Assembly: GCA_020352515.1 (NCBI GenBank)
Contig: CP070678.1
Location: 1,583,752-1,620,324, forward strand
Source: Phycisphaerales bacterium
Lineage (GTDB): Bacteria > Planctomycetota > Phycisphaerae > Sedimentisphaerales > Anaerobacaceae
Reading direction: 5' to 3'
Length of the DNA stretch: 36,573 bases
The notes beneath the pieces were generated by a model. It was not told the origin of the DNA and did not search any database. It saw nothing but the letters and a program-made list of their open reading frames with translations. Positions 2,764 through 19,082 of the stretch are shown here, piece by piece. The stretch's first letter is position 1. Every line of letters starts with the position of its first letter. The position numbers and the translations under genes are program-made.

Positions 2764-3549
2764 TTAACGTCTCCGGCGAAGCCCGACCAATCCGCCCAGG
2801 CCCAGCAAAATCAGCGTTGCCGGCTCAGGTACGTACTCGTAGATATCCTGAATCTCCGCCGGGCTCAGAGCTGTATCATACAGCCGCACGTCGTCCATCG
2901 CCCCTGTAAACCAGTCCGCGCCCGCTTTCGGGTGTTTGCCAAGAACGTATTTGGTGATGGTCGAGAGGTTACCCGGTGTCGCCGTGCCCATCGTCCTTAC
3001 ACTGACACCGTCAACGTAGATATTAATCGCGGAATTCTCCCACGTTGAGCCGTCGCCGGCAACGTTCTGAAAGACCAAAGCCAAGTGGCTCCAGGCGTTT
3101 GCGGGAATGGGAGTAGCAAGCTCGTCAGCAACCACCGTACCCGTATCCATTTTGAAATACCACCTTGGCTTATTGTTGCGCAGATAGAAGGAGCCGCCGG
3201 CAACGATACCTACCGTGCTGTCGGAATATGGCTCGACGGGCTTGACCCAGCCTGTCCAGGTGAAGCTATCAGCCAAGCCGGCTGGTGCATCGCTGGTAAC
3301 AAACTGGTGGTCCGCTTTGTCAAGATAAATTGCGTTACCCAGGTTGCGCCCGGGAATGTCTCCGGGCACGAGCCAGGTTACAGGGCCAGCATCATGCATT
3401 ATGTCCGCCTCTATACCCCTCACGGAGTCGTAAGCGGTCGTACCGGCGCCTTCAGAGAACTCCAGGCGAGACACCAAGTCCGCCGGGGCATTACCGGCCA
3501 TACACAATACCACAGAGATAACAGCTACCATCAAGATTCTTCCAAACAT
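2764..3549 (-). CDS. LamG-domain protein with PEP-CTERM sorting signal
   Basis: This 261-residue secreted protein has a signal peptide (MFGRILMVAVISVVLCMAG), one LamG/concanavalin-like jelly roll (about 25-235) and a C-terminal PEP-CTERM tail (VPEPATLILLG, then GLVGLRRRR), the signal processed by exosortase systems. It therefore likely ends up at the cell surface or in the matrix. The start at 3549 is chosen because AGGAGG sits about 6 bases before it; an in-frame ATG 60 bases upstream would put residues before the signal peptide. The LamG domain is closely similar to that of the protein at 19083-20741, for example the shared stretches GLADSFTWTGWV and HLALVFQNVAGDGSTWEN, so these are recent paralogues with different C-termini. 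An operator-like palindrome lies in its leader. The ligand is unknown; sugar binding is inferred. Confidence 0.9.
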   Translation of the reverse strand: MFGRILMVAVISVVLCMAGNAPADLVSRLEFSEGAGTTAYDSVRGIEADIMHDAGPVTWLVPGDIPGRNLGNAIYLDKADHQFVTSDAPAGLADSFTWTGWVKPVEPYSDSTVGIVAGGSFYLRNNKPRWYFKMDTGTVVADELATPIPANAWSHLALVFQNVAGDGSTWENSAINIYVDGVSVRTMGTATPGNLSTITKYVLGKHPKAGADWFTGAMDDVRLYDTALSPAEIQDIYEYVPEPATLILLGLGGLVGLRRRR

Positions 3550-3658: not shown

Positions 3659-3678
3659 TTACGTTTGCGTAAACGTAA
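3659..3678. promoter_or_regulatory. LacI/GalR-type operator, site 1
   Basis: This is a perfect palindrome with 8-bp arms, TTACGTTT and AAACGTAA, around GCGT, centred on a CG step. It lies about 50-70 bases downstream of the predicted start of transcription of the minus-strand LamG gene, where a bound repressor could block elongation. The core GTTTGCGTAAAC recurs at 4413-4424 and 17087-17098. Confidence 0.7.
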
Positions 3679-3734
3679 CCGGCGGAAAAAAACAGGGCCG
3701 CTAACCCCATGCCCTTTCTACTATTCACAAACGA

Positions 3735-3764
3735 ATGATACCACACTCGTCGCATCGGTGTCAA
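3735..3764 (-). promoter_or_regulatory. Sigma70-like promoter for LamG PEP-CTERM gene
   Basis: On the minus strand TTGACA (3764-3759) is followed after 18 bases by TATCAT (3740-3735). Transcription would start near 3728, giving a leader of about 180 bases that contains operator site 1. Confidence 0.6.
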
Positions 3765-4372
3765 GGAAAATCTGGCTTTCAGGCGGAAGAATCATTGCGC
3801 CGAAGTGATCCAAGAAACCATAAATCCTTAGTTCACAGGTGTTTACAATCACTTCACGTCTTGGATAGCACACGCTGAAAAAGACGCAACCGCCCCTATC
3901 ACTCTCGTCTATAGCACGGTATAGCCGTCTTTGGCGCCTCCTCTGCCGGACTCTTCCCAGCCGAAACATACCTACCCCTATTTAAACAGGCTGTGTCTGA
4001 AAACGCAGTGCCTGGCTTCGAGCGGCTTGTTCGACCTCCGGCGGCGTCCGTCTCCATCGACATATCTCCGGGGATACGCCTGCTTCGACGTCCTTGCCAG
4101 CGGCCGAACCGCTCACTCTCGGGCCGACGGCAGCGTTTTCAGACAAAGCCCAAATTCAGCCGCCAAATGGCGTGCGCCGGGAGCCGGCGCTATCCCGGAC
4201 GCCCCAAGAAGAACCGCCAATTTCACTTGGTTAGCTGTAGCGCCGAAGACGTGTTTGGTCAAGTGCGGTTGGCCCCGCTACGATTAGCGCGATGCCCATC
4301 GCAATGCAGCAGCTTAGCCCATGGCTTGGGGATGCTTCGAACACGACCTGCGAGAGTGCGACAAATTTTTCA

Positions 4373-4401
4373 TTGACGCGCCTGCAAGAAGAAAGTATTA
4401 T
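4373..4401 (+). promoter_or_regulatory. Sigma70-like promoter of the sugar/methyltransferase cluster
   Basis: TTGACG (4373-4378) and TATTAT (4396-4401) are spaced by 17 bases. The predicted start point near 4408 abuts operator site 2, the classical place for repression. It is the only strong promoter found ahead of the long co-directional gene run. Confidence 0.65.
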
Positions 4402-4410
4402 CTTAAAGTA

Positions 4411-4426
4411 ACGTTTACGAAAACGT
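4411..4426. promoter_or_regulatory. LacI/GalR-type operator, site 2
   Basis: The palindrome ACGTTT-ACGA-AAACGT, centred on CG, lies immediately after the predicted -10 box and ahead of the MttB-family start codon at 4468. It shares the core GTTT-RCGW-AAAC with sites 1 and 3. Confidence 0.7.
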
Positions 4427-4467
4427 ATATTCGTCGTCTTACTCACGTTGAACGAAGGGTGGCCAAG

Positions 4468-5952
4468 ATGCTGACAAAGGAAGGGATCATCCCGATTCGC
4501 GGCGGACAATACAAGATTCTCTCGGAACATCAGATACAAGCTCTGCACGATGCGACCGCTGAGGTCTTGCAGAAAGTCGGCCTCAAGGTGATGCACGAGG
4601 AGGCGCTCGAGCTGCTCAGGTCCAACGGATGCAACGTAGACTTTGAAAGACAGGTAGCCAAAATTCCAGAAGAGGTGCTGATGAAATATGTCGGCATGGC
4701 CCCCTCAAAAGTCCCTCACTACGGCAGGGATGCAAAGTACGACCTTATACTTGATGATTCGGACAGCGTGTACGTAATGGGTGGCGCAGGTGCGGTACAC
4801 TACCTGGATATGGAAGGTGAACGTCGCGAGTCTACAATGAGGGCGCTGGAGGACTTCACGCGTCTCGAGGACACGTTGGAGTATATGGACATCGCTCATT
4901 TCCTCCTGACGCCGCAGGATATCGAACAGAAGGGTCATGAGATGCTTTTGTTTGCCCACATGCTTAAGAACAACACACGCAACTTCTATGCTCTGCCCGG
5001 CGGTTGTCGTAAAGGTCTGGAATTCCAGATTGAGATGGCGGCAGTCTGCGCCGGCAGTGTCGAAGAAGTCTCGAAGAGGCCCTTCTTCACGGCGGGCCTG
5101 TGTATTCTGAGCCCCCTGACGCACAGGCGGGATTTTGTTGAGGAGTTGTGGGCCTGCGGCGATTACAACATCCCGGCGTATGTGGAAGCGGATGCGATGG
5201 CCGGAGGAACCACACCATTCACAATCGCCGGGTGCATCGTTGAGGTCAACGCTAACGTGCTGGCCGCCATTGCGCTGGCTCAAATGAAGAATCCAGGCGC
5301 CCCGTGCGTCTATTCATCCAGCTCAGGGATATTAGATATGAGGACACTGAATTTCGCCGGATGCGCCCCGGAAAGCACGCTGTTGCACATGGCCTCATGC
5401 CAAATGGCACACCACTATCATCTGCCCTACTACGGTACAAACACCCCTGACTCAAAACTGCCTGACGCCCAGATGGGTTATGAAAGGGCGCAGCATTTTC
5501 TTGGCTGTGCACTGGCCGGCGTGAACATCATCCACGTTGCTATTGGCAACCTGGAAATGATGAGACTGGCTTCTTTCGAGCAGTGTCTGATAGACAACGA
5601 AATTCTCGGGGCCACGTTCCGTTTTGTCCAGGGTATAGACTGCCGTCGCGAGGCGATAGGCCTTGATGCTTTCGAGGAGGTCCGACACAGCAGCCGTTTT
5701 CTTGAGTGCCAGCACACTCTAAACTTCGTTAGAAGCAGGGAAAGGTGGGAGCCAAAGCTCACAGATCGTAACTCATGGAACAGTTGGATGGAGAGAACCG
5801 GCGGTAAAGACATGCGTGAAAGGGCCCGGGCCATGGCGTCCGATATTCTCAAGACGCACCACCCCAAGTACGCGAGTGACCGGCAGGCTGAAGAGATCGA
5901 CCGAATTGCCATGGAAGCGCAGAAATACTTTGTAAACGGAGGTACGCAATGA
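4468..5952 (+). CDS. MttB-family (trimethylamine methyltransferase-like) protein, non-pyrrolysine
   Basis: The 494-residue product matches the MttB superfamily over its whole length (usual length about 480-500), with typical stretches such as GGAGAVHYLD (N-terminal third), VYSSSSGILDMRT (middle) and ALAGVNIIHVAIGN (C-terminal third). Family members move a methyl group from a methylated amine to a corrinoid protein. The frame has no internal amber codon, so this is the pyrrolysine-free type, whose characterised members act on quaternary amines such as glycine betaine, proline betaine or carnitine. The start at 4468 is preferred over an ATG at 4321 because the promoter and operator lie between them. 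It is the first gene of the cluster. No corrinoid protein, downstream methyltransferase or corrinoid-activating protein is next to it. Its substrate is therefore open; a methylated amino-sugar or osmolyte is a hypothesis. Confidence 0.88.
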   Translation: MLTKEGIIPIRGGQYKILSEHQIQALHDATAEVLQKVGLKVMHEEALELLRSNGCNVDFERQVAKIPEEVLMKYVGMAPSKVPHYGRDAKYDLILDDSDSVYVMGGAGAVHYLDMEGERRESTMRALEDFTRLEDTLEYMDIAHFLLTPQDIEQKGHEMLLFAHMLKNNTRNFYALPGGCRKGLEFQIEMAAVCAGSVEEVSKRPFFTAGLCILSPLTHRRDFVEELWACGDYNIPAYVEADAMAGGTTPFTIAGCIVEVNANVLAAIALAQMKNPGAPCVYSSSSGILDMRTLNFAGCAPESTLLHMASCQMAHHYHLPYYGTNTPDSKLPDAQMGYERAQHFLGCALAGVNIIHVAIGNLEMMRLASFEQCLIDNEILGATFRFVQGIDCRREAIGLDAFEEVRHSSRFLECQHTLNFVRSRERWEPKLTDRNSWNSWMERTGGKDMRERARAMASDILKTHHPKYASDRQAEEIDRIAMEAQKYFVNGGTQ

Positions 5953-6200
5953 CGCACCTTACACTTGGCCCACTACGGAACAGCCGCCTATGGTGCGGGC
6001 AAGAGGGTTCTGCGTTCGTTCACGCCGCACAGTGGGACTCAAGCGGGCCAAGGCGGGTAAAGTCCCAAATTGATCGTCACGCCGGAAAGGCGCAAGACGT
6101 TGCCGGCCTGACGACCTCGGATGTAAGCGAAATTAACCAGCCGCAGTCAGAGAAAGCCTGTTTGGCACAATCGAATTATACAGAACGAAATACGGAATGA
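5949..6200 (+). pseudogene. Short ORF overlapping the MttB-family stop, possibly a frameshifted gene remnant
   Basis: An ATG at 5949 overlaps the preceding TGA and has a strong ribosome binding site, GGAGGT at 5938-5943. The frame gives 83 residues with no recognisable domain and an unnatural composition. After residue 7 the +1 frame reads on with a more protein-like stretch, HYGTAAYGAGKRVL, ending at a TAA near 6060. This suggests that one extra C in the run around 5969-5971 broke a gene that was translationally coupled to the methyltransferase. I cannot name the family. It could also be a real short peptide, or nothing. The rest of the gap up to 6232 shows no other gene. Confidence 0.35.
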
Positions 6201-6232
6201 AGACTCCTTGTTGAAGAACGAAAGAGACGACT

Positions 6233-7567
6233 ATGTGTTCGCAATTGGCTATTAACGGCGCCAAACCAACCGTCCCCAAGGGCCTGCACAGACCCTGGCC
6301 ACCGATTGTACAGGACGACATTGATGCCGTGGTCACGGTCCTAAAGAGGGGCATACTCTGGGGGCCGATGGAAGAGGAAGTGACCGGCTTACAGAGGGAA
6401 TTTGCTGAGTATATAGGAGCCAAGCACGCTCTGGTAGTCAATTCGGGCACGGCTGCACTGCATGCATCGGTGGCGGCCGCCGGCGTGGAGGCAGGCGACG
6501 AGGTGATCCTGCCTGCATACACTTTCTGGGCGACGGCCCAGGCGGTATTGGCCCATCACGGAATACCCGTGTTCGTGGATATCGAGCCGGACTACATGAA
6601 TATAGACCCGTCGAAGATAGAAGAAAAGATCACAGACCGGACTGTGGCGCTGCTGCCGGTTCACGTACACGGCCTTTGCGCTGACATGGACCCGATCGTT
6701 AGGATCGCTGAGAAACACGGCCTGAAAGTTGTTGAAGATGCTGCCCAGGCAGCGGGCGCCAAGTACAGGGGTAGAAATGCAGGCGTGTTAGGCGATATCG
6801 CAGGCTTCAGCCTCAACGGGAGCAAGAATCTGCCGGCAGGAGAAGGCGGCATCGTCACAACGAACGACGACGAGTTGTTTGACAGCGCGCGAAAGATGGC
6901 CATGTTCGGCGAGAAGCTTGTGCCCAAGGGCGCGATCCGACTCTACGATGCGGAGATCATGGGGTTCAACTATCGTAATAATGAGATGGCGGACGCTCTG
7001 TGCCGGTCAATCCTCAGAAGATATGATAACCTTCAGGCTCTGCGTAGAGCCAACTGTGAGTATTTGAATACTCAACTGGCTAAGATCGAGGGCGTAAGGC
7101 CGCCTGAGCAACCCGATGGGTACGTACATAGCTGGCACCTTTACAAAGTCAGAGTCTATCCTGAAAAACTGGGTATAGCCGATGTTCACGTCAAAAGATT
7201 TCGCTGGGCGGTTCAAAAGGCTCTCCAGGCTGAAGGTTGTGACCTGTTCGAATGGCACAATATGCCCGTGCCCGCACAGAAGATATTCCTTAAAAGAGAT
7301 GCTTACGGCAAGGGAGCCCCATGGACTTGCGGTCACACCAGCGCGCAGGCCGCGACCATGGTCTATGACCCATTCGACTATCCGGTCTGTATAGACATGT
7401 TCGACAGGTCTTTTTGCATCAAGCCCGTTTATCCGCCGAATGACCTGAAGCTTATGGAGTACTATATTGAAGCATTCACCAAGGTATTTGACAACATTGA
7501 CGAAGTGCTTGAATTCTCAAAGAGAATTGAGTTCCCAGCGGTACCAGGTGAAAAAAGAGACATATAG
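6233..7567 (+). CDS. DegT/DnrJ/EryC1/StrS-family PLP-dependent aminotransferase
   Basis: This 444-residue fold-type I PLP enzyme belongs to the sugar aminotransferase family. Visible signatures are NSGTAALHASV (70-80, phosphate-binding), EDAAQAAGA (168-176, with Asp169 for the pyridine nitrogen) and SKNLPAGEGG (197-206), where Lys198 is the expected PLP lysine. Members usually transfer an amino group between glutamate or glutamine and a keto-sugar, commonly nucleotide-activated but also sugar phosphates. The presence of an isomerase, dehydrogenase and HAD protein downstream resembles in kind the oxidation, transamination and dephosphorylation logic known for kanosamine, but orthology is not claimed. 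The start codon at 6233 has only a weak purine-rich stretch upstream (GAAAGAGA). It might work in the catabolic direction, on an amino-sugar, because the cluster also has glycosidase and uptake genes. Confidence 0.9.
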   Translation: MCSQLAINGAKPTVPKGLHRPWPPIVQDDIDAVVTVLKRGILWGPMEEEVTGLQREFAEYIGAKHALVVNSGTAALHASVAAAGVEAGDEVILPAYTFWATAQAVLAHHGIPVFVDIEPDYMNIDPSKIEEKITDRTVALLPVHVHGLCADMDPIVRIAEKHGLKVVEDAAQAAGAKYRGRNAGVLGDIAGFSLNGSKNLPAGEGGIVTTNDDELFDSARKMAMFGEKLVPKGAIRLYDAEIMGFNYRNNEMADALCRSILRRYDNLQALRRANCEYLNTQLAKIEGVRPPEQPDGYVHSWHLYKVRVYPEKLGIADVHVKRFRWAVQKALQAEGCDLFEWHNMPVPAQKIFLKRDAYGKGAPWTCGHTSAQAATMVYDPFDYPVCIDMFDRSFCIKPVYPPNDLKLMEYYIEAFTKVFDNIDEVLEFSKRIEFPAVPGEKRDI

Positions 7568-7584
7568 TCTGGAGGCGCCAAGAG

Positions 7585-8169
7585 ATGTCGGAGTACTTGG
7601 AATTAACAACAAAGATTCTAAACGAGCACAGACAGGTCCTTTTAGACGTCAAGGACGAAGAAGTTGAGAGACTACTTGAGGCCGTTGCCGAGGCCAGGAG
7701 CGTTCAAGTCTTCGGAATGGGAAGAATGAAGTGCGCAGTGAGGGCGTTTGTCATGCGGCTTATGCATATGGGCCTTGATGCCCATGTCGTGTATGATACA
7801 ACCTGCCCCAATATTGGCCCCGGTGATCTGCTGATCGTCAACTGTGCGTGCACGACGATCGGCTACACCGTAATGCAATTTGCCAAGAGGCTCGGCGCCA
7901 ACGTGGTGGCAATTACGGCAAACCGCAATTCCAAAGCTGCAAAGTTGTGTGACTTTACGGTGAGCCTCAGAGGTCAGGTGCACGGCGGCAGAGACTACGA
8001 AATACCCTCGGTACAGCCGATGGCGGCGTTGTTCGAGCAGGCCATCTTTATCTTTGAAGATATAGTTGTACAGTTGTTGATGAAAAAGCTGAATATTACA
8101 GCCCAGCAGATGGCAAAGAGGCACACAAATCTTGACGGCTATATGGATTTCAACGTTGATGAGAATTAA
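7585..8169 (+). CDS. SIS-domain sugar-phosphate isomerase, 6-phospho-3-hexuloisomerase-like
   Basis: The 194-residue SIS-domain protein resembles 6-phospho-3-hexuloisomerases (HxlB/PHI) in length and layout. The sugar-phosphate loop GMGRMKCAVRAF follows the first strand (about 44-55). NCACTTIGYT is in the place of the usual S/T-rich GxSGxT loop, so the usual glycine-serine arrangement is altered. The conserved C-terminal part has PMAALFEQAIFIFED and ends in AKRHTNLDGY, as in PHI proteins. It likely interconverts a ketose and aldose phosphate in the cytoplasm. A good ribosome binding site (TGGAGG) precedes the ATG. No hexulose-phosphate synthase lies nearby, so a ribulose-monophosphate role in formaldehyde fixation is not supported here, although it would fit a demethylation pathway if one were encoded elsewhere. 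Confidence 0.82.
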   Translation: MSEYLELTTKILNEHRQVLLDVKDEEVERLLEAVAEARSVQVFGMGRMKCAVRAFVMRLMHMGLDAHVVYDTTCPNIGPGDLLIVNCACTTIGYTVMQFAKRLGANVVAITANRNSKAAKLCDFTVSLRGQVHGGRDYEIPSVQPMAALFEQAIFIFEDIVVQLLMKKLNITAQQMAKRHTNLDGYMDFNVDEN

Positions 8170-8186
8170 GAAAGGGGACGCCGGCA

Positions 8187-9332
8187 ATGGCACGAAGAAC
8201 GGCAAGGGCCAACCTGCTTTCAGAACCTAGGGGAGATTTCATTATTGGGGAGTACCCACTTCCGGAACCGGCTCCCGGTACCGTCTTAATGAAGATCGAG
8301 CTGTGCGGAATTTGCGGGACGGATGTTCACACCTGGCATGCATCGGCCGACGCCGTCGGTTGCGAGTACCCAATCAGTCTCGGCCACGAGATATCAGGTA
8401 CGGTTGCGGCTTTAGGCGAAGGAGTCACAACCGATTATGTTGGTCAGCCACTGAAGGTTGGCGACAGGATAGGTGTCTGTCCCGCCATCCACTGCCACAA
8501 GTGCTATTACTGCACTATCGCAAAGACACCGGAGAAATGCACCGACTGGAAAACGTACGGCACGTGGCCCAGAGCCGATCAGGAACCCCACTTCACAGGA
8601 GGCTACGGCGACTACCTTTACATTCATGATCCCAACTCCGTGTTCCTTAAGACAAACACCTCCGCCGAGCGGACGGCGTTCCTGGAGCCGATGGCCGTCG
8701 TTGTGCACTCGCTTTTGCACGCAAATATTAAGCCGGGCGACACGGTGGTCGTCCAGGGCTCGGGGCCGATCGGGCTGCTCACTATCGCCTGCTGCAAGAC
8801 CGCAGGGGCAGCCCGCCTGATTGCCACGGGAAGGAGAAATAGGAAACGACTCAAGTTGGCGCGGAAAATAGGAGCCGACCTGACTATGTGTCATGCCGAT
8901 ATGCCCGACCCGAAAGACCGTAAGGAGTTCGTGTTTGACAACTCATTGAATCTGGTCGGAGCAGACATCGTGATTAACACTGTCGGCACATGTGACGGCT
9001 TCGCCGAGTGCCTTGATTTCGTTAGAAACAGCGGAACGATAGTCGAGGTGGGAAACTTCGTGGATTCCGGAACATTTGCCTTCGATCCTTGCAGGGACCT
9101 TTTGGAGAAGGGTATAAGAATAGTAGGCAGCTTTGACAACGAGGCGGAACATTTCGTCCGTTCCCTGCCGCTGGTCGCCGATGCACGAATACCCTTGGAA
9201 GAGCTAATCACGCACAGAGTGCCGCTGGGAGATGTACAAAGGTCACTGGACGCTGTTAGCCAGGGGCGAAAACTGGATGGCAAGGAGGTGGTCAAAGTAA
9301 TGATGGATCCTGGATTGCCGGAGAGAGGTTGA
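8187..9332 (+). CDS. Zinc-dependent medium-chain alcohol/polyol dehydrogenase
   Basis: The 381-residue protein has the medium-chain dehydrogenase fold. Catalytic zinc ligands are Cys43 (in CGICGTD), His67 and Glu68 (GHE). Structural zinc ligands are Cys103, Cys106, Cys109 and Cys118, with a last spacing one residue longer than usual. The NAD(P)-binding Rossmann loop is GSGPIGLL (about 191). Sequence style is that of threonine/sorbitol dehydrogenase-like enzymes, so oxidation of a sugar or sugar-derived hydroxyl is the likely reaction. It sits 17 bases after the SIS gene and one base before the next start codon, which supports co-transcription. AAAGGGGA precedes the ATG. The exact substrate cannot be read from the sequence. 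Confidence 0.9.
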   Translation: MARRTARANLLSEPRGDFIIGEYPLPEPAPGTVLMKIELCGICGTDVHTWHASADAVGCEYPISLGHEISGTVAALGEGVTTDYVGQPLKVGDRIGVCPAIHCHKCYYCTIAKTPEKCTDWKTYGTWPRADQEPHFTGGYGDYLYIHDPNSVFLKTNTSAERTAFLEPMAVVVHSLLHANIKPGDTVVVQGSGPIGLLTIACCKTAGAARLIATGRRNRKRLKLARKIGADLTMCHADMPDPKDRKEFVFDNSLNLVGADIVINTVGTCDGFAECLDFVRNSGTIVEVGNFVDSGTFAFDPCRDLLEKGIRIVGSFDNEAEHFVRSLPLVADARIPLEELITHRVPLGDVQRSLDAVSQGRKLDGKEVVKVMMDPGLPERG

Positions 9333-9333
9333 T

Positions 9334-10581
9334 ATGCTGAGAAACGTTCCACGTTGTATCTCACCCGATCTGATTCACGCCCTGATGAGCATGGGGCACG
9401 GCGATGAAATCGTCCTGGCGGACGCGGACTTTCCCGCCGTGACTAATTCAGGCAGAGTTATCCGCGCCGACGGCGTCGATATCGCCAGACTGCTTGAGGC
9501 AATCCTGCCGTTCTTTCCCCTCGATGCTTTTGTGGAAAAACCTGCCGTCACCATGGATTGCTCTGAATGGGGGGATGAACCGGAATCCTACGAGAGGTTT
9601 AGAAGGACTATCAGAAAGCATAATAGAAAGTTCAAGGATTTCGACTTTCTGGGGCGTTTCGAATTCTACGAACGAGCGAGAGGCGCCTTCGCCGTAGTGG
9701 TTACAAGCGAAGCGGATGGTAACGTTATTCTCAAAAAAGGCCCGGTAATGATGGACCCCGGCGATGCGGACAAAAATGTCGGTTCGCAGAAGGCCGAAGG
9801 CGACGCGAACACCCCCGATAGTCTGCCCGTGGGACAGTCGTCCGCAAATGCCGGCGGGACCCGGTATATTGACAAATACAAGGTGCTTCTATTGGACATG
9901 GGTCGCACCTTCATGTTCAACGTGGATCGTTTCTATGATGCTGATGCAGTTTGGGCCATGTACTGCAATCTTGGTGGAGACCGTCTAAACAGCCAAGATC
10001 TATACCAGATACTCTCGCAAGTGTTCCATCAGATAATTGCTGACAGTAAAAAGCCGGAAAAACAGGAGAGTTTCCCCCCTGTTCTGGCCTACCTGAGCAT
10101 ACATCCGAAGTCAGCACAACTGCCCCTGCATGAAATCGGCATCTTGGAGAGAGTGTTTTGCGAGCAGGAGATAGGTTCTGTCCCCCAACGGTATGTAAAC
10201 GTCTTGCGAGAGCTTCACACAACACACCGTTTGGGAGTCGTATCCGATATCTGGTCCCGCAGTGACAGATTCTATCGGGAACTCGAACATGTCGGCATCC
10301 GAGGCCTGTTCGAAACCATAGTGTTTTCTTCCGACATTCGCGTAATAAAACCCTCCCGAAAGATCTTTCAGAAGGCTCTGGATGCTTTCGGCTCGGATCC
10401 GTCGGATGTGGTCTGTATCGGCGACAGCCTGCAAAGGGACATCGCCGGAGCGAAGAAGGCTGGAATGGCGACCGTGTGGATTCAAAACGGAGAGGTCTCC
10501 GAGACGAATCCTTCGGTTCAGCCGGATATTGTCATCAATGATTTGCAGGATATTCTAACTGCGCGAGCGCCGCGACCTTGA
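9334..10581 (+). CDS. Fusion of L-fucose mutarotase (FucU/RbsD) domain and HAD-family hydrolase domain
   Basis: Residues 1-140 match FucU (start MLRNVPRCISPDLIHALMSM, then GHGDEIVLADADFPA with the expected catalytic His22). These enzymes interconvert anomers of L-fucose or related pyranoses. A linker of about 40 residues rich in Gly, Ser and Asp leads to a HAD domain (about 183-410) with motif I LLLDMGRT (Asp188), motif II Ser304 (GVVSD), motif III Lys339 (IKPSRKIF) and motif IV CIGDSLQRD (Asp364, Asp369). The second motif I aspartate, used as acid/base by phosphatases, is replaced by Gly190, so classical phosphatase activity is doubtful. Both domains are normally separate proteins. It starts one base after the dehydrogenase stop, with GGAGAGAGG upstream, showing tight coupling. 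Confidence 0.85.
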   Translation: MLRNVPRCISPDLIHALMSMGHGDEIVLADADFPAVTNSGRVIRADGVDIARLLEAILPFFPLDAFVEKPAVTMDCSEWGDEPESYERFRRTIRKHNRKFKDFDFLGRFEFYERARGAFAVVVTSEADGNVILKKGPVMMDPGDADKNVGSQKAEGDANTPDSLPVGQSSANAGGTRYIDKYKVLLLDMGRTFMFNVDRFYDADAVWAMYCNLGGDRLNSQDLYQILSQVFHQIIADSKKPEKQESFPPVLAYLSIHPKSAQLPLHEIGILERVFCEQEIGSVPQRYVNVLRELHTTHRLGVVSDIWSRSDRFYRELEHVGIRGLFETIVFSSDIRVIKPSRKIFQKALDAFGSDPSDVVCIGDSLQRDIAGAKKAGMATVWIQNGEVSETNPSVQPDIVINDLQDILTARAPRP

Positions 10582-10584
10582 CTA

Positions 10585-10890
10585 TTGACAACGATTGGCG
10601 CAGAACCTGGTATAAAAGGCGAGAGTATAGCGATGGTAGCCAGGCGCCTTGATACCATTACCCCGAAACCTCCCTTCTATAAGAGGTGTTGCATGGAGGA
10701 TGTCTTCTACCCCGGCAGACTGACTAATTTGGGAGAGGCCGTACTCTCTACGGGCGGGGCTGCCTCCAACACGGGCCCTGCCGTGGCCAAGCTCGGCGTC
10801 GACGCAGTTCTCAGCGGGCAGGTGGACAATTGGCAGTTTACAGCCGACTTCCTTGAGGATAGAATGGAAGTTCGCAATCCAGTGGGGTAG
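10585..10890 (+). pseudogene. Truncated PfkB-family sugar kinase remnant
   Basis: The 101-residue frame carries only the N-terminal part of a PfkB/ribokinase-type kinase. FYPGRLTNLGEAVLSTGG, then AASNTGPAVAKLG and the GQVDNWQ segment correspond to the substrate-binding lid and first strands. The stop at 10890 comes after about a third of the usual 300-350 residues, and the ATP-binding and catalytic GAGD region is absent. The following 80 bases give no continuation in another frame that I can recognise. It begins three bases after the HAD stop, so a kinase was once part of this operon. A short regulatory protein is possible but less likely. Confidence 0.75.
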
Positions 10891-10972
10891 GACGACAACA
10901 ATTGGTTCTATTCACTAAGTCAACAGGTGTATTACGGCCTGCATGACAGGTTGATTCTTGAGAGAAGGCTAA

Positions 10973-12577
10973 ATGGACTTTAGGCTGAACATCGGCTTGT
11001 ATGACCTGCTAATCGTAGTAGCGTACCTGGCCGCAATGGTTTTCTTGGGCTGTTGGGTGGGTTTGAGGCAGCGGAAGAAAGCCGTTGGCAGCGGCTATTT
11101 TCTGGCGAGCAAGTCGCTTCTCTGGCCTTGGATCGGTTTGTCCCTTTTCTCAACAAACATATCCACGATCGAACTGGTTAGCATGGCTGAAGAAGGCTAT
11201 AAGCGAGGGCTGGTTTACGGGAACTTGGAGTGGATGGCGGCATTGACACTAATCGTGCTCGCTCTGTTTTTTGCGCCCTTCTACATACGCAGCAATGTCT
11301 CGACCCTTCCGGGTTTTCTGTTGAAGCGATACGATAACCGCTGCCGCGTTTTCGAGGTTGTCATCGCAATCTTCTCCGCCATTTTCATTCACACCGGCTT
11401 CGCTTTGTTTGCAGGCGCGAAGGTAATGGAAGGCCTGTTCAACATGCCCATTATGACAAGCATGACTATCATATTGCTGCTTACGGGTCTGTATACAATT
11501 GTAGGGGGCCTCAAGGCGGTAGTCCTGACCGATTCTCTCGCGACAGTCGTGCTGATAAGCGGCAGTATCATCATGACGGCGATCGGCTTCCACCGGGTAG
11601 GGGGCTGGGAAGGACTAACTGCGAGTGTGGAGCCGGCCAGGTTGCACATGCTGCGGTCGGCCAAGGACGTGCCGGATATGTCGTGGTATTCGGTCTTTTT
11701 GGGCTATCCAATTATCGGGATTTGGTATTTTTGCACCGACCAGACTATCGTTCAACGCGTGCTTGGCGCCAAAGATGTGAAGCACGCCCAGTTAGGCCCG
11801 ATCTTCGCCGGCTTCATCAAAATTCTCCCCGTTTTCATTTTTGTGATGCCGGGATTAATCTGCTACGCGCTCATCCGCAACGGCGCTCTGCCAGACAAGC
11901 TCGAGGACTCCGCCACGACGTACGCCTACTTGATAGCACACATTCTTCCGGCAGGCCTTCAAGGCGTCGTCGCGGCGGCGATGCTGGCCGCATTAATGAG
12001 CACTCTGTCAAGCGCGCTCAACTCGATTGCCACTGTTTTCTGCTACGATATATATAAGCCCTTGCGGCCCGAAACCTCTGATCGCACTTTGGTCAGGGTG
12101 GGCCGAATCACGACTCTGGTCGCTATGCTTTTGGCGATCCTGTGGGCGCCCAGAATTGCCAGATTTGAGAGCATTCTCGAAGGCAACACGATGATGATAT
12201 GTTACGTTGCGCCGAGTATCACGGCGGTGTTCCTGGCGGGCGTTTTATGGAAACGGGCTTCAGCAAAGGGTGCTTTTCTAACACTCTGCGCGGGAACCGC
12301 CATGGGAGCGGTGGTTTTCATACTGGATTTTGTGTTGGGAAAATGGAATTATTCATTTATGATGACCGGCTTCTGGCTGTTCGTTCTTTGCTCGGTGATT
12401 TTGGTTGTGACATCACTTGTATATCCCCATAAGCATACTCGTGAAAGCGAAAGACTAACCTGGGCCAATCCGCTTGAGGCGATCCGCACGCCGGGCTGGC
12501 GGGGCCTTGCCAACTATAAATTTCTGTCTCTCTTGCTGCTTGCGGTCATGGCGCTGCTGTACATAATCTTCGACTAA
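10973..12577 (+). CDS. SSS-family sodium:solute symporter
   Basis: The 534-residue inner-membrane protein has about 13 hydrophobic segments and the solute:sodium symporter signature near the N-terminus (ASKSLLWPWIGLSLFSTNIS, about 46-65, as in SglT-like sugar transporters). AAAMLAALMSTLSSALNS (about 335-352) matches the conserved TM8 region with the sodium-site serines. Family members take up sugars, amino acids or other solutes with sodium. Its place between sugar enzymes and the mutarotase/glycosidase genes suggests uptake of the sugar freed by the GH106-type enzyme. The start has AGAAGG upstream. Charged intracellular C-terminal loops are normal for the family. Confidence 0.92.
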   Translation: MDFRLNIGLYDLLIVVAYLAAMVFLGCWVGLRQRKKAVGSGYFLASKSLLWPWIGLSLFSTNISTIELVSMAEEGYKRGLVYGNLEWMAALTLIVLALFFAPFYIRSNVSTLPGFLLKRYDNRCRVFEVVIAIFSAIFIHTGFALFAGAKVMEGLFNMPIMTSMTIILLLTGLYTIVGGLKAVVLTDSLATVVLISGSIIMTAIGFHRVGGWEGLTASVEPARLHMLRSAKDVPDMSWYSVFLGYPIIGIWYFCTDQTIVQRVLGAKDVKHAQLGPIFAGFIKILPVFIFVMPGLICYALIRNGALPDKLEDSATTYAYLIAHILPAGLQGVVAAAMLAALMSTLSSALNSIATVFCYDIYKPLRPETSDRTLVRVGRITTLVAMLLAILWAPRIARFESILEGNTMMICYVAPSITAVFLAGVLWKRASAKGAFLTLCAGTAMGAVVFILDFVLGKWNYSFMMTGFWLFVLCSVILVVTSLVYPHKHTRESERLTWANPLEAIRTPGWRGLANYKFLSLLLLAVMALLYIIFD

Positions 12578-12647
12578 ACTTTCTGAGCGATTTTCGGCGT
12601 CTCGATACGCCCATGGGTGTATCAATGTTTGAAAGGATAATATTTTT

Positions 12648-13451
12648 ATGAAACTCCCGCTCAAGTCAAACACTCTCATGGCCGTTCTTTTCGCGTTTGC
12701 TCTTCTGCTTTCGGGATGTGCCGGACAGGAAAAAACTATAAGGCGCTTCGGCCGGATCGCGATATTGGGACCGGATGAAGCAGAGGAGTATAGAAGAAAA
12801 CTCTACGTGGCGCTTCCACCCCACGTGCTCCAAGAGCTGAGCAGCCACAATATAGGCAGCTACTCGATTTACGTCAAGGATTTGAAGGAAGCGCAGCCGT
12901 GCCTGTTTGCCTACTTCGAGTACACGGGCGACAATTTCGATGTTGATATGGCCGAAATGATGAGAGACGAAGCCGTGGAAAGATGGAACCCTGTCGCGGC
13001 AGGTGTGTTGGCAACTGGTGAGTCATCTGGGACAAACGAGCCATTGTGGATCGATATGGAGCAAGTGTTCTATTTTGCCGGCAAAACCCACGCCCAGCCC
13101 GATGAGTCAAAGGTCCGGCGATACGGCACTGTGATAGGCTTAAGAGCTGAAATGGTTGAGTCATACAAGCTGCTGCATAAGTATGCCTGGCCGGAGGTGC
13201 TTGCGGCCATTGAACGGGGCAACATACGAAGCTATTCTATTTACCTTCATCGCATCGAGGATGAGTTCTACCTATTTAGCTACTTCGAGTATACGGGCGA
13301 CGATTTTGACATGGATATGGCTCTAATAGACAACGATCCAGCGACAAAGGCTTGGATAAAGTTTACCGACAAGGGCTGTCAACTGCCCATACCCACCCGC
13401 GCCGAGGGTGAGTGGTGGGCCGAGATGGAGGAGGTGTTCCACTTAGATTGA
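12648..13451 (+). CDS. Lipoprotein with two L-rhamnose mutarotase (RhaM) domains
   Basis: The 267-residue product begins with a lipoprotein signal peptide (lipobox LSGC, Cys24) and then carries two RhaM-type ferredoxin-like domains, about 33-142 and 156-267. Each shows the family pattern SYSIY followed by YFEYTGD-FD-DM, and ends with EQVFY or EEVFH. RhaM interconverts alpha and beta L-rhamnose. The second domain keeps the expected catalytic His177 and Trp181 (HKYAWPEV). In the first the corresponding positions are Leu52 and Leu56 (KLYVALPP), so it probably lost catalysis and may bind sugar or support dimer-like packing. RhaM is normally a single-domain cytoplasmic enzyme; here a surface or periplasmic location is predicted. 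Its place between a symporter and a GH106-type enzyme fits delivery of the right anomer for uptake. Confidence 0.85.
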   Translation: MKLPLKSNTLMAVLFAFALLLSGCAGQEKTIRRFGRIAILGPDEAEEYRRKLYVALPPHVLQELSSHNIGSYSIYVKDLKEAQPCLFAYFEYTGDNFDVDMAEMMRDEAVERWNPVAAGVLATGESSGTNEPLWIDMEQVFYFAGKTHAQPDESKVRRYGTVIGLRAEMVESYKLLHKYAWPEVLAAIERGNIRSYSIYLHRIEDEFYLFSYFEYTGDDFDMDMALIDNDPATKAWIKFTDKGCQLPIPTRAEGEWWAEMEEVFHLD

Positions 13452-13657
13452 GCCGGCACGTCAACCCGCTTTGGCCGGCGCAACGTCAAGTGGCCCAAAC
13501 TGAATCGACGGTTGATGACTCATTTGAACAGGCAAGGACAAGAGCTCTGGTAAAGGCCCGCCGATGCGATCGGCAAAGGCAAATCGAATAATATGAACGC
13601 GAGGCCAACTCGCAACGAATACTGGTACAGCTGAATCCGCAAGAGGAGCTGACACGC

Positions 13658-16483
13658 ATGGCTGCAATACAAACGGGACTTCGCCTGAGATTATTGGGTA
13701 TTTTTGGCGCCTTGGCCTCCTATTTCATGTTTGCGGCTGGTGCGCACGCGAAAGACACGTCGCGTGTCAGTTGGCCCCAGGCGACGAAAGAGTGCCGGCC
13801 TTGGGCATACTGGTGCTGGATGGGCAGCGCCGTGGACAGAGATAATCTAACCGAGCTTCTGGCAGAATACCGCAGGGTCGGCATCGGTGGGGTGACAGTC
13901 ATTCCCATGTACGGCGTAAAAGGCTGTGAGGGCCGCTTTATCGATTATCTATCAGCAGAGTGGCTTGAGATATTTGAGTATGCCGCGAGTGAGGCTGAGC
14001 GATTGGACATGGGCATTGATACGACCTTGTGCACGGGCTGGCCATATGGCGGTCCATGGGTGTCCGTCGAAGACGCCGACTCCGTGATCATACTAAAGAG
14101 CTACAACCTTGACGCTGACACACAAGTTGACAAAAAACTCCAATTCAAGCAAGGCAAGCTTCAAGCTGTAATGGGATACTCACCGGACGGCAACGTGCTT
14201 GACCTCACAGACAAAGTGGACAGTAATGGTGTTCTGGACTGGGTCCCCTCAGAGGGCAACTGGGATGTGTATGCTGTTTCGCAACGCCCCTCACCCCAGA
14301 GGGTAAAACGTGCCGGACCCGGCGGCGCAGGGTATCCTGTGAACCCCTTTTCTTACGAATCATTAAGAAACCACCTCTCACAGTTTGACAAGGCGTTGGC
14401 CGGACGCGGACAGCCTCTTGCGCGCGCCTATTTTCACGACTCCTTTGAGTATGCCGGAAATTGGACCCCGGATTTCTTTGAGCAGTTCAAGTCTCGCAGA
14501 GGTTATGATCTCAGAAGACATTTACCTGCTTTGCTGGAAAAGGGTACAGAAGAAGTGGTCGCAAGGGTAAAATCCGACTATAGGGAGACCCTGTCGGACA
14601 TGCTGCTCGAACGCTTCACCGTGCCGTGGGTCGAGTGGTGCCATAAGAAGGGAAGCATTGCGCGTAATCAGGCTCATGGTTCTCCCGGCAACGTCCTTGA
14701 TTTGTACGCCGCTGCGGATATACCCGAGACAGAAGTTTTCGGACCGGTCAGGCTTAACATCCCCGGGTTGCGGACCGACCCTGATTCCCTCAAAAAGCAT
14801 TATCTCAAACCGGATCCGTTAGTCTTGAAATTTGCATCCTCAGCCGCTCACTTGACAGGCAAGAGATTAACCTCTTCCGAGACCTGTACATGGCTTGGGG
14901 AACATTTTAAGATCGCTCTATCCCAGGTCAAAGCTGAAGCGGACCTGCTGTTCGTCTCGGGCGTTAACCATATATCCCTTCATAATATCGCCTATTCACC
15001 CGCCGATGCGCCGTGGCCGGGCTGGCTCTTCTATGCTTCCGCCAATTTCGGACCCTCTAATACCATCTGGCGGGATTTTCCCGAGTTCAATGCCTACGTC
15101 GCCAGATGCTGTTCGATCCTGCAAAGTAGCAGGCCCGCCAACGATATTCTGGTCTATTTCCCCATATATGATTGGTGGCACGGCCGAGGCGGGATGTTGA
15201 GACGCTGGGAAGTTTGGAACCAGAACAGCTGGTTCAACGGCAGCACATTTCAAAGAGTTGTAAAGAGACTGTGGAATCGAGGATACACGTTCGATTACGT
15301 CTCAGACAGACTGCTGGCCAGGGTCCGAAGCTCCCCGGCGCACCTGGAGTCGTGCGGCGCAAAATACCAAGCGGTGATAGTCCCCGAATGCCGCTTTATG
15401 CCCATAGGGACCATGGAGAAACTGATCGACCTTGCCAAGGCCGGGGCAACCATCATCTTTCAAGAAAACATGCCGCGAGATGTTCCGGGGCTTGGCGCCT
15501 TGGCAATACGACAAGAGCGTCTCAGGGAGATTCTGGCCGCTGTCGCCGTCTCCAACTCACGCCATCCTGGGATAAGAAAGGCAACGATAGGCAGCGGACA
15601 GTTTCTCATTGGCCGGGATATTGAACAGATGCTGGGTCTGACTGGTGTCCGTCGCGAATCCATTGTTGATACAAACGGGATCAACTTTGTTCGACGCGCC
15701 TATCAAGAAGGATACTACTATTTCATTGCCAATATGGGCGAGTTGAATTTCGACGGCTGGATTACCCTCGGCACAAAGGCAATATCGGCCGCAATATTGG
15801 ATCCGCTGTCTTCAACGCAAGGCCTGGCGGCTATAGATAAGCAACAAAACGGTCTGACACGAGTTTATCTCCAGTTGCAGGCCGGGGAGTCTCGTATTCT
15901 GCAGACCTTCTCGTCATCAGTTTCTCAGGAACCCGGCTGGAAGTATTGGCGGCGCGGCGATCGGTCCTACGAACTCAAGGGAACCTGGGAGATAACGTTC
16001 GTTGAAGGTGGCCCGAGTCTGCCGGCGAGCCTGCGAACGAAGAAGCTGGCGTCGTGGACCAAACTTGGTGGAACTGAAGCCGAAGCATTTTCTGGAACAG
16101 CACTCTATACTATCAAGTTTGACAAACCTGCCGTGAACGCGGACGATTGGGTACTTGATCTTGGAAGAGTGTGTGAGAGTGTCCGCGTGCGAATAAACGG
16201 CCGCAGTGCAGGGACGCTCTTCAGCGTTCCCTTTCAGATTCGCCTCGGCCAATTCCTGCGCGAAGGAGTGAACCTGCTTGAGTTGGAGGTAACAAATCTC
16301 ACTGCCAACAGGATTGCCGACATGGACCGTCGCAAAATACCCTGGAAGAGATACCACGATATCAATTTCGTCAACATGCAGTACAACGAGTTTGATGCTT
16401 CTGACTGGGCTCCGATGGATTCAGGGCTGATAGGTCCGGTTCACCTTATTCCGTGTGTGGCGTTCAGGCCTGGCGAGCAGTAG
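13658..16483 (+). CDS. Secreted GH106-type glycosidase (alpha-L-rhamnosidase-like)
   Basis: The 941-residue protein has a signal peptide (about 1-31, ending AGAHA) and the architecture of family GH106. The N-terminal motif ECRPWAYWCWMGSAV (45-59) and GIGGVTVIPMYG (75-86) mark the TIM barrel. DSFEYAGNWTPDFFEQF (about 265-281) and TSSETCTWLGEHF (about 408-420) carry candidate catalytic acids. GVNHISLHNIAYSP follows, as in the family. The C-terminal 200 residues form beta-sandwich domains with LDLGRVCESVRVRINGR and the ending DSGLIGPVHL. Characterised GH106 enzymes remove alpha-L-rhamnose from pectic or bacterial polysaccharides. The ATG at 13658 has AGAGGAG about ten bases upstream. It is the last gene of the cluster, after a 206-base gap without visible features. 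Rhamnose specificity is inferred from the family and the neighbouring RhaM protein. Confidence 0.87.
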   Translation: MAAIQTGLRLRLLGIFGALASYFMFAAGAHAKDTSRVSWPQATKECRPWAYWCWMGSAVDRDNLTELLAEYRRVGIGGVTVIPMYGVKGCEGRFIDYLSAEWLEIFEYAASEAERLDMGIDTTLCTGWPYGGPWVSVEDADSVIILKSYNLDADTQVDKKLQFKQGKLQAVMGYSPDGNVLDLTDKVDSNGVLDWVPSEGNWDVYAVSQRPSPQRVKRAGPGGAGYPVNPFSYESLRNHLSQFDKALAGRGQPLARAYFHDSFEYAGNWTPDFFEQFKSRRGYDLRRHLPALLEKGTEEVVARVKSDYRETLSDMLLERFTVPWVEWCHKKGSIARNQAHGSPGNVLDLYAAADIPETEVFGPVRLNIPGLRTDPDSLKKHYLKPDPLVLKFASSAAHLTGKRLTSSETCTWLGEHFKIALSQVKAEADLLFVSGVNHISLHNIAYSPADAPWPGWLFYASANFGPSNTIWRDFPEFNAYVARCCSILQSSRPANDILVYFPIYDWWHGRGGMLRRWEVWNQNSWFNGSTFQRVVKRLWNRGYTFDYVSDRLLARVRSSPAHLESCGAKYQAVIVPECRFMPIGTMEKLIDLAKAGATIIFQENMPRDVPGLGALAIRQERLREILAAVAVSNSRHPGIRKATIGSGQFLIGRDIEQMLGLTGVRRESIVDTNGINFVRRAYQEGYYYFIANMGELNFDGWITLGTKAISAAILDPLSSTQGLAAIDKQQNGLTRVYLQLQAGESRILQTFSSSVSQEPGWKYWRRGDRSYELKGTWEITFVEGGPSLPASLRTKKLASWTKLGGTEAEAFSGTALYTIKFDKPAVNADDWVLDLGRVCESVRVRINGRSAGTLFSVPFQIRLGQFLREGVNLLELEVTNLTANRIADMDRRKIPWKRYHDINFVNMQYNEFDASDWAPMDSGLIGPVHLIPCVAFRPGEQ

Positions 16484-16803
16484 TACTATCGAAATGAATT
16501 CCGCAGGGCCTTTTGGGGTGTAGAAATGGAATGTCTCTCCTTTGAGCCGCATTCGTCGTCAAACGAGGGTCAATTCCGGAAGAACATCCACCGAGACGCC
16601 CGCGATCCTGTATACCGGTCAATGCCGCGGAAGTCGAACGCCGTAGGAATCTGGCGTGTCGCGCTGCAATATCGGGCTCGCGTTCACCCGGCTCTATTGT
16701 TATGGGAGCTTGCGTGTGCAGACTTGATTTCCCCAGCCATGCCAAGTCTAAATGTGCACCCAACAGCCGGTCTATGCCGGGAGACAGGGACGTCATCGAA
16801 CAA

Positions 16804-16822
16804 CCGAAAAACAGTTTTTCGG
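16804..16822 (+). terminator. Possible intrinsic terminator hairpin
   Basis: The inverted repeat CCGAAAAA-CAG-TTTTTCGG is perfect, and its right arm contains five T. The stem is AT-rich and the T-run lies inside it rather than after it, so termination activity is uncertain. Confidence 0.3.
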
Positions 16823-16984
16823 CAGAATCGCAACGGTCGATTATTACCTCCAAGGGCAGATGGCTACACGGCGCAACCCCATTTTTTGGCCGAAAAAGCT
16901 GGTGTTAAGAGCTCTCCACGGCCCTGCGCAACCGGCAGATGCGCCCACCCGCACCGGCCGGCCGCCAAAAGCAAAATATTTCAC

Positions 16985-17013
16985 TTGACTTCGCTGACGT
17001 GCCGATATATATT
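16985..17013 (+). promoter_or_regulatory. Sigma70-like promoter of the LamG gene pair
   Basis: TTGACT (16985-16990) and TATATT (17008-17013) are separated by 17 bases. Transcription would start near 17020, about 65 bases before operator site 3, the same arrangement as for the minus-strand LamG gene. Confidence 0.65.
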
Positions 17014-17084
17014 GATCGTGGTTGGGTTACGAGTGTGGCTTGCTCGATGAGGTTCGCGTAGGAGCCTTTTTTTGATGACAGTTG

Positions 17085-17100
17085 ATGTTTACGTAAACCT
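17085..17100. promoter_or_regulatory. LacI/GalR-type operator, site 3
   Basis: The sequence ATGTTTACGTAAACCT contains the perfect 12-base palindrome GTTTACGTAAAC, centred on CG. It matches the cores of sites 1 and 2, with weaker outer positions. Confidence 0.65.
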
Positions 17101-17299
17101 AATTGAATCCCAACGGCGTACCCCTGTGTCGTCGGTTTCTCGCTGCCGGCGCGTGCAACAGAACGTTGGCGCAGCCGCTGCCAACAACGGTTACGTACAG
17201 GGGCAATTGCTTCTCTTTCACACAGAAGCATTGCCCAGGCGTCGGATGATGAGGCAATGATGCCACAGGCCGAGTTCATTTAAATGAAAGGAGGATGTT

Positions 17300-19048: not shown

Positions 19049-19082
19049 TAGGTCTTTATCTTTATTCGGAAGGAGAAGTATT

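What the first reader, a model, noticed from the sequence alone, without database searches (positions are those of the whole stretch)
3659..17100. Three CG-centred palindromes define a putative LacI/GalR regulon spanning the whole locus
Seen directly: sites at 3659-3678, 4411-4426 and 17085-17100 share the core GTTT-RCGW-AAAC, and each is placed at or 50-70 bases downstream of a promoter with 17-18 base spacing. They precede the LamG PEP-CTERM gene, the 12 kb cluster and the LamG pair. A partial scan by eye found only half-sites elsewhere. LacI-family proteins typically bind palindromes centred on CG. Inference: one repressor co-regulates intracellular catabolism and the secreted LamG proteins, giving the latter a functional link to a specific sugar.
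Basis: partly seen in the sequence, partly recalled or inferred. Interest (0 to 1): 0.75.

Follow-up and report, generated by a model that had tools for sequence, protein, structure and literature searches.

The report
Six-site LacI-type deoxysugar polysaccharide regulon
Three near-identical palindromes in this planctomycete locus, plus three more elsewhere in the same genome, sit downstream of promoter-like sequences and are likely the binding sites of one repressor, predicted to be a LacI-family protein encoded about 2.4 Mb away, that would switch on LamG proteins predicted to be secreted, glycosidases and a sugar-breakdown gene run together.

Summary
Exact GTTTNCGNAAAC occurs in the window only at 3663-3674, 4413-4424 and 17087-17098 (0.027 expected). 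The 16-mer AYGTTTACGTAAACRT with at most one mismatch has six places in the 5.84-Mb genome: these and three more. Eighty-eight family relatives hold six together; the reversed control finds none here. None of the six lies in a gene with a recognised family. Each lies downstream of a sigma-70-like promoter on the matching strand. The other three precede a LamG gene, a GH30-GH78 pair and a GH29-sulfatase run. The upstream regions share only the motif. The genome has two LacI genes and no GntR match. P0002 is unlikely: of seven relatives' genomes with its recognition helix, five lack the motif and two have one place each, and its group's promoters show another palindrome. P0001 (QM-TVSR) remains and, like the exact motif, was found in no other sampled genome. 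Against: no operator by P0001, position -3 is T not A, binding untested. New member of a known kind: a dispersed LacI-type local regulon.

The parts
3659..3678 (.). operator A (TTACGTTTGCGTAAACGTAA)
   Evidence: matrix score 29.7 against 12.0 for the best non-site among 147,751 windows of held own-genome DNA
3735..3764 (-). promoter-like TTGACA-18-TATCAT with TG before the second hexamer, ~60 bases upstream of operator A
2764..3549 (-). LamG PEP-CTERM protein gene; start read by eye at 3549 behind a GGAGGAGT ribosome-site-like stretch
   Evidence: the ORF listing gives an earlier start, 3609
4373..4401 (+). promoter-like TTGACG-17-TATTAT before the catabolic run
4409..4428 (.). operator B (TAACGTTTACGAAAACGTAT), about the expected transcription start
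4468..5952 (+). MttB-family (trimethylamine methyltransferase family) protein without in-frame TAG; start 4468 chosen because orthologues begin there, the open frame itself extends to 4321
6233..7567 (+). DegT/DnrJ/EryC1-type aminotransferase
7585..8169 (+). SIS-domain protein close to 6-phospho-3-hexuloisomerase (158.1 bits, cut-off 160)
8187..9332 (+). zinc-type alcohol/polyol dehydrogenase
9334..10581 (+). RbsD/FucU mutarotase fused to HAD hydrolase
10973..12577 (+). sodium:solute symporter (SSF)
12648..13451 (+). protein with two L-rhamnose mutarotase (rhaM) stretches and a lipoprotein-like N-terminus (by eye)
13658..16483 (+). GH106 alpha-L-rhamnosidase
16985..17013 (+). promoter-like TTGACT-17-TATATT of the LamG pair
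17083..17102 (.). operator C (TGATGTTTACGTAAACCTAA)
17300..19048 (+). LamG protein 1 of the pair
19083..20741 (+). LamG protein 2 of the pair; ATG start inferred at 19083, just after gene 1

Best explanation
The palindromes are likely the operators of one sugar-responsive LacI-family repressor, predicted to be P0001 (genome 4021255-4022262), which would block six promoters until a sugar released from a rhamnose- and fucose-containing polysaccharide binds it. Shown: the six sites share a palindrome centred on CG, lie 43-202 bases before start codons and always downstream of a -10-like hexamer, none is in a gene with a recognised family, and the upstream regions are otherwise unrelated. Shown: what follows the sites is two LamG units in the window, an eight-gene run ending in a GH106 rhamnosidase, a 933-residue double-LamG protein, a GH30-GH78 pair and a GH29-sulfatase-GH29-GH2 run. 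Inferred: each run is one transcript; a repressor bound past the promoter blocks initiation (site B) or elongation (the other five); the ligand is a 6-deoxysugar such as L-rhamnose or L-fucose; and the protein that binds is P0001, by elimination of the other LacI gene and absence of GntR genes.
For: Six places at no more than one mismatch in this genome, six in 88 family relatives together, no reversed-pattern match here (Poisson P about 1e-9 from relatives or 8e-7 from the control; the pattern was drawn from the sites, so these flatter). The exact 16-mer occurs in 0 of 391 other sampled phylum genomes and twice here. In leave-one-out each site scores 22.7-28.5 with a matrix from the other five and no background window of 147,751 held reaches it. 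Promoter-like pairs precede 6 of 6 sites on the right strand. No similarity between upstream regions beyond 12-20 bases at the motif, apart from scattered short matches at E 0.3 or worse. Two PF00356 genes, no PF00392 match. P0002 relatives with the same LHYTTVSKAL helix occur in 7 family genomes among the loci held; 5 of these have no motif place and 2 have one each, inside open frames without a Pfam family. Four of the seven, and P0002 itself, show a different shared stretch before the gene, AACGTTATATCACACGT in the four. P0001 relatives keep QM[TS][VI]SR in 59 of 59 complete helices. R at AA-20 goes with G at NT-6 (PMC2978694), and NT-6 is G in 12 of 12 half-sites.
Against: No operator lies near P0001 or P0002, whereas 72% of studied LacI regulators are autoregulated (PMC4052901, passage). 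NT-3 is T in 12 of 12 half-sites, while the canonical TVSR backbone has A there. P0001 is beside none of the targets. MttB orthologues in four other loci have no motif at one mismatch or fewer. Two of six sites lie about 200 bases from the start codon, outside the usual 30-140. The bare core is no commoner than its reverse. Open frames without a Pfam family cover sites C, D and E, a 66-residue frame covers A, and B lies in the upstream extension of the MttB frame. Masked stretches (N) and an estimated completeness of 87.5% leave room for an unseen regulator.
Confidence: 0.7

Rival explanations
1. The operators are real but another regulator binds them, such as the XylR-like Peripla_BP_3+AraC protein (L107:7679-8899) or a regulator of a family not searched for.
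For: The XylR-like protein scores best in the genome for the Peripla_BP_3 sensor domain and carries an AraC helix-turn-helix. No regulator gene was recognised among the scanned neighbours of the sites. NT-3 = T departs from the TVSR backbone.
Against: Even palindromes with a central CG are the rule for LacI-family regulators (1173 of 1303, PMC4052901). AraC proteins usually bind direct repeats (recalled). No GntR match exists in the genome. DeoR, ROK and other families were not searched for.
Confidence: 0.2
2. P0002, the second LacI protein, is the repressor.
For: One of only two LacI genes; its hinge keeps a leucine where a CG centre expects one (by eye).
Against: Of seven family genomes with relatives carrying the same recognition helix, five have no motif place and two have one each inside open frames. 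Four of seven relatives' promoters, and its own, share a different stretch. AA-20 is K, not R.
Confidence: 0.05
3. Chance palindromes: the core is no commoner than its reverse in this genome.
For: 7 places against 7 for the reversed core; 13 against 19 for a 14-mer with one mismatch; the 16-mer with up to three mismatches has 39 against 31.
Against: The 16-mer separates sharply: 6 places at 0-1 mismatch, 3 at two (all in frames with a Pfam family), 30 at three. The three unseen sites have the promoter layout and kinds of gene seen in the window.
Confidence: 0.02
4. The sites are copies carried along by duplication of LamG genes, with no regulatory role.
For: The LamG proteins of units C and D are related (30-57% in parts; the script's row for unit A returned nothing because of a frame slip of mine).
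Against: Upstream regions share only the motif, and three of the six sites precede genes that are not LamG.
Confidence: 0.03

Closest known systems
LacI-family local sugar regulons (Ravcheev et al. 2014, PMC4052901)
   Same: Even palindrome centred on CG, upstream sites, small carbohydrate regulon
   Different: No operator seen at the regulator's own gene; that gene lies about 2.4 Mb from the window; 'planctomyc' has 0 occurrences in the paper's main text
LacI-type RhaR, RhmR and RhiR (Rodionova et al. 2013, PMC3870299)
   Same: LacI regulators of rhamnose oligosaccharide or rhamnogalacturonide uptake and breakdown; 20-base palindromes (passages)
   Different: Those regulators were found by their place in the neighbourhood of the target genes; here no isomerase, kinase or aldolase of the known rhamnose pathway was recognised in the window's run, which starts with an MttB-family gene, and LamG proteins are included
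E. coli GntR/IdnR (LacI family, KMTVSR helix; recalled)
   Same: Methionine at AA-16 and a half-site ATGTTACC with TT at NT-5, NT-4, as in the present A(C/T)GTTTAC
   Different: NT-3 is A there, T here; different ligand and targets; helix and operator letters are recalled, not from a call

Membership tests
LacI-family operator set | Even-length palindrome with central CG | tested here: met
   6 of 6 sites
LacI-family operator set | Sites upstream of genes, rarely in coding DNA | tested here: met
   6 of 6 before a start codon, none in a frame with a Pfam family; 4 of 6 within 30-140 bases of the start, two near 200
LacI-family operator set | G at NT-6 where the regulator has R at AA-20 | tested here: met
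   12 of 12 half-sites; P0001 is TVSR; rule from PMC2978694
LacI-family operator set | Typical but not defining: A at NT-3 in the TVSR group | tested here: not met
   T in 12 of 12 half-sites
LacI-family operator set | Usual but not defining (72%): autoregulation | tested here: not met
   no site near 4021255 or 5053800
LacI-family operator set | Binding by a LacI protein, relieved by a sugar | not testable with these tools
   needs gel shift
LacI-family repressor (P0001) | PF00356 helix-turn-helix plus Peripla_BP sensor | tested here: met
GntR/AraR-type operator | A GntR-family regulator in the genome | tested here: not met
   0 PF00392 matches; control rings in 12 of 14 genomes
XylR-type (AraC) operator | An AraC-type protein with sugar sensor that binds this motif | tested here: inconclusive
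   protein present, binding unknown

The most novel reading that the evidence does not exclude
A lone, non-autoregulated LacI protein of a rare QM-TVSR group commands a dispersed six-promoter regulon in a planctomycete. It ties secreted LamG and PEP-CTERM proteins to a methyltransferase-led breakdown operon, so these surface proteins would be working parts for one methylated, sulfated deoxysugar polysaccharide whose N- or O-methyl groups the MttB-family protein removes.
Probability: 0.2. Interest if true: 0.7.

Novelty: new member of a known kind. Interest (0 to 1): 0.45.

Why it matters
Planctomycetes carry many scattered glycosidases, sulfatases, LamG and PEP-CTERM proteins without a clear locus structure to say which act together (general knowledge). 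A genome-wide operator set groups genes at three distant places into one unit and gives a testable role to LamG proteins that homology alone cannot place. It also narrows the regulator to one gene.

Tried and rejected
Chance (rejected). Duplication of upstream DNA (rejected). P0002 as regulator (nearly rejected). GntR-type regulator (rejected). The fourth exact-core place outside the window, GTTTTCGAAAAC at 5513401, lies inside a Band_7 gene and is not among the 16-mer places with up to three mismatches; dropped as background. The three two-mismatch places (125083, 1910372, 1911823) lie inside frames with Beta_helix, T2SSE and T2SSF domains and were dropped. Footprinting through MttB orthologues led nowhere: L015-L018, the four of 21 loci with 61-72% identity, hold no motif at one mismatch or fewer, so the operator is not inherited with the cassette. 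A search for P0001 relatives at E<=1e-60 found only the own genome (0 of 391 phylum, 0 of 396 class; these samples may overlap), so the P0001-motif link could not be footprinted; the relatives came without genomic context.

apply it to both: frames of 124-248 residues that cover sites C, D and E have no Pfam family, A is covered by a 66-residue frame only, F by none of 60 residues or more, and B only by the extension of the MttB frame and a minus-strand frame of 121 residues that I did not scan (4231-4596).

Full report
What was checked. The three palindromes are present at the stated places and no other exact GTTTNCGNAAAC lies in the 36.6-kb window. By base composition 0.027 are expected there. 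Genome-wide the bare core gives 7 places in 5.84 Mb, as does the reversed pattern, and ACGTTTNCGNAAAC with one mismatch gives 13 forward matches against 19 for the control, so the core alone proves nothing. Three of the seven core places lie in this window; random placement puts three of seven within 13.44 kb with a simulated frequency of 0.0005.

Extension of the motif. Of the four core places outside the window, three read GTTTACGTAAAC and lie upstream of genes; the fourth, GTTTTCGAAAAC, lies inside a Band_7 gene. The 16-mer AYGTTTACGTAAACRT gives 2 exact places, 4 with one mismatch, 3 with two and 30 with three, 39 in all against 31 for the reversed control at the same cut. The six at one mismatch or fewer are the three window sites and the three GTTTACGTAAAC places; the three at two mismatches lie inside frames with Pfam domains. 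In 88 other genomes of the family, 351 Mb together by the rounded sizes shown, the same search at one mismatch gives 6 places in 5 genomes; the reversed control gives 18 in these and none in the own genome. Of those six background places four lie inside open frames (two of these with a Pfam family) and two between frames. The exact 16-mer is absent from 391 other sampled genomes of the phylum. The pattern was written from the sites, so these probabilities flatter. Leave-one-out avoids that in part: each site scores 22.7-28.5 with a matrix from the other five, and no other window of 147,751 in eight held stretches of the genome reaches it; the best non-site scores 12.0 with the full matrix.

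Are the sites between genes? By recognised genes, yes. Mechanically, open frames of 124-248 residues without any Pfam family cover C, D and E, a 66-residue frame covers A, none of 60 residues or more covers F, and B lies in the upstream extension of the MttB frame, whose orthologues begin at 4468, and in an unscanned minus-strand frame of 121 residues.

Anatomy. Every site has a sigma-70-like promoter upstream on the strand of the gene it precedes: A TTGACA-18-TATCAT, B TTGACG-17-TATTAT, C TTGACT-17-TATATT, D TTGACG-17-GAGAAT, E TTGACC-17-TAAAAT, F TTGACT-17-TATGAT. The four scans found 9 such pairs in all against about 2.3 expected from shuffles. Core sites begin about 60, 11, 73, 60, 91 and 90 bases after the -10 hexamer and end about 113, 43, 201, 92, 44 and 202 bases before the start codon. 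One search prints three of the latter one base off; I corrected them by reading the sequence. A position past the promoter fits a repressor, not an activator (inference). The six upstream regions share no similarity beyond 12-20 bases at the motif apart from scattered matches at E 0.3 or worse, so the sites were not copied with their genes.

Targets. A: LamG PEP-CTERM protein. B: MttB-family protein, DegT-type aminotransferase, SIS-domain protein just under the hexuloisomerase cut-off, zinc dehydrogenase, FucU-HAD fusion, SSF symporter, double rhaM protein, GH106 rhamnosidase. C: two LamG proteins. D: 933-residue protein with two LamG domains. E: a protein with the GH30 C-terminal domain followed after 12 bases by a bacterial alpha-L-rhamnosidase of the GH78 kind (family number recalled) that also carries a polysaccharide deacetylase domain. 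F: GH29 fucosidase, sulfatase, a second GH29 protein, GH2. Whether all genes of each run share one transcript is inferred from strand and spacing; gaps of about 280 and 390 bases occur in run B. Secretion of the LamG proteins is read from their N-termini and, for A, the PEP-CTERM match. Rhamnose and fucose recur in five domain families of units B, E and F (GH106, rhaM, FucU, GH78, GH29), so a 6-deoxysugar is the likeliest ligand (inference).

Regulator. The genome holds two proteins with the LacI DNA-binding domain, four with the Peripla_BP_3 sensor (the same two, an AraC-type XylR-like protein and a transport-type binding protein by eye) and no GntR match. P0002 belongs to a large group (4,589 proteins at E<=1e-30 among 8,000 scored); of the 118 of 120 listed that I aligned, 102 carry TVSK or TISK and 16 TVSR. 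Among the loci held, seven family genomes have relatives of 60-63% identity with the same LHYTTVSKAL helix. Five of those genomes have no motif place and two have one each, inside open frames. Four of the seven carry AACGTTATATCACACGT, and P0002 itself AACGTTATATCAAACGT, just after a promoter-like pair read by eye; the other three relatives do not. That stretch is the likely operator of P0002's group and is not the present motif.

P0001. One search lists 62 relatives of 48-74% identity (P0005-P0066; three shorter fragments were left out, P0004 is the protein itself), and all 59 with a complete helix carry QM[TS][VI]SR. Its best match in 88 family relatives has 36% identity. No relative at E<=1e-60 occurs in 391 sampled phylum or 396 sampled class genomes, with up to five candidates scored in each. 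Regulator and exact motif are thus both confined to this genome in the samples, which is a single case. The published LacI code links R at AA-20 to G at NT-6 and AA-15/16 to NT-5/-4 (PMC2978694, abstract and section 5 read); G is at NT-6 in 12 of 12 half-sites. E. coli GntR, with KM at AA-15/16, has TT at NT-5/-4 (recalled), as here. Against it, NT-3 is T in all half-sites instead of A, and no operator lies by the gene.

Literature. Of PMC4052901 I saw the abstract, section 9 and passages; of PMC3870299 passages. Searches listed no paper whose title or abstract start describes such a regulon in Planctomycetes; I read none of those listed, and one search showed 12 of 34.

Verdict. A real, dispersed, six-operator regulon of a familiar type, with one LacI gene as the likely regulator. 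Surprise is moderate; the use is in grouping otherwise unplaced LamG, glycosidase and MttB-family genes.

Noticed in passing
window 4468-9332; L015, L016, L017, L018: MttB orthologues of 61-72% identity occur in MAGs labelled Planctomycetota, Spirochaetales, Spirochaetota and Actinomycetota. In three of the four (not L018) a DegT-like frame follows, and in L015 also SIS-like and dehydrogenase-like frames (by eye). DegT plus a hexuloisomerase-like SIS protein plus dehydrogenase would suit 3-keto or 3-amino sugars, with MttB perhaps removing N-methyl groups (idea only).
   Followed up: partly
L014 about 7720-7760; L097, L098, L100, L102: Shared stretch AACGTTATATCACACGT (AACGTTATATCAAACGT in L014) before genes of the P0002 LacI group, a likely autoregulatory operator.
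   Followed up: partly
window 17300-20741: Both LamG proteins of the pair end in dockerin-like stretches such as DVNGDCVVDFRD (read from the translations; name recalled).
   Followed up: no
window 9334-10581: FucU mutarotase fused to a HAD hydrolase in one frame.
   Followed up: no
window 28007-30886: Protein combining Chlamydia PMP-type repeats with a type I phosphodiesterase domain.
   Followed up: no
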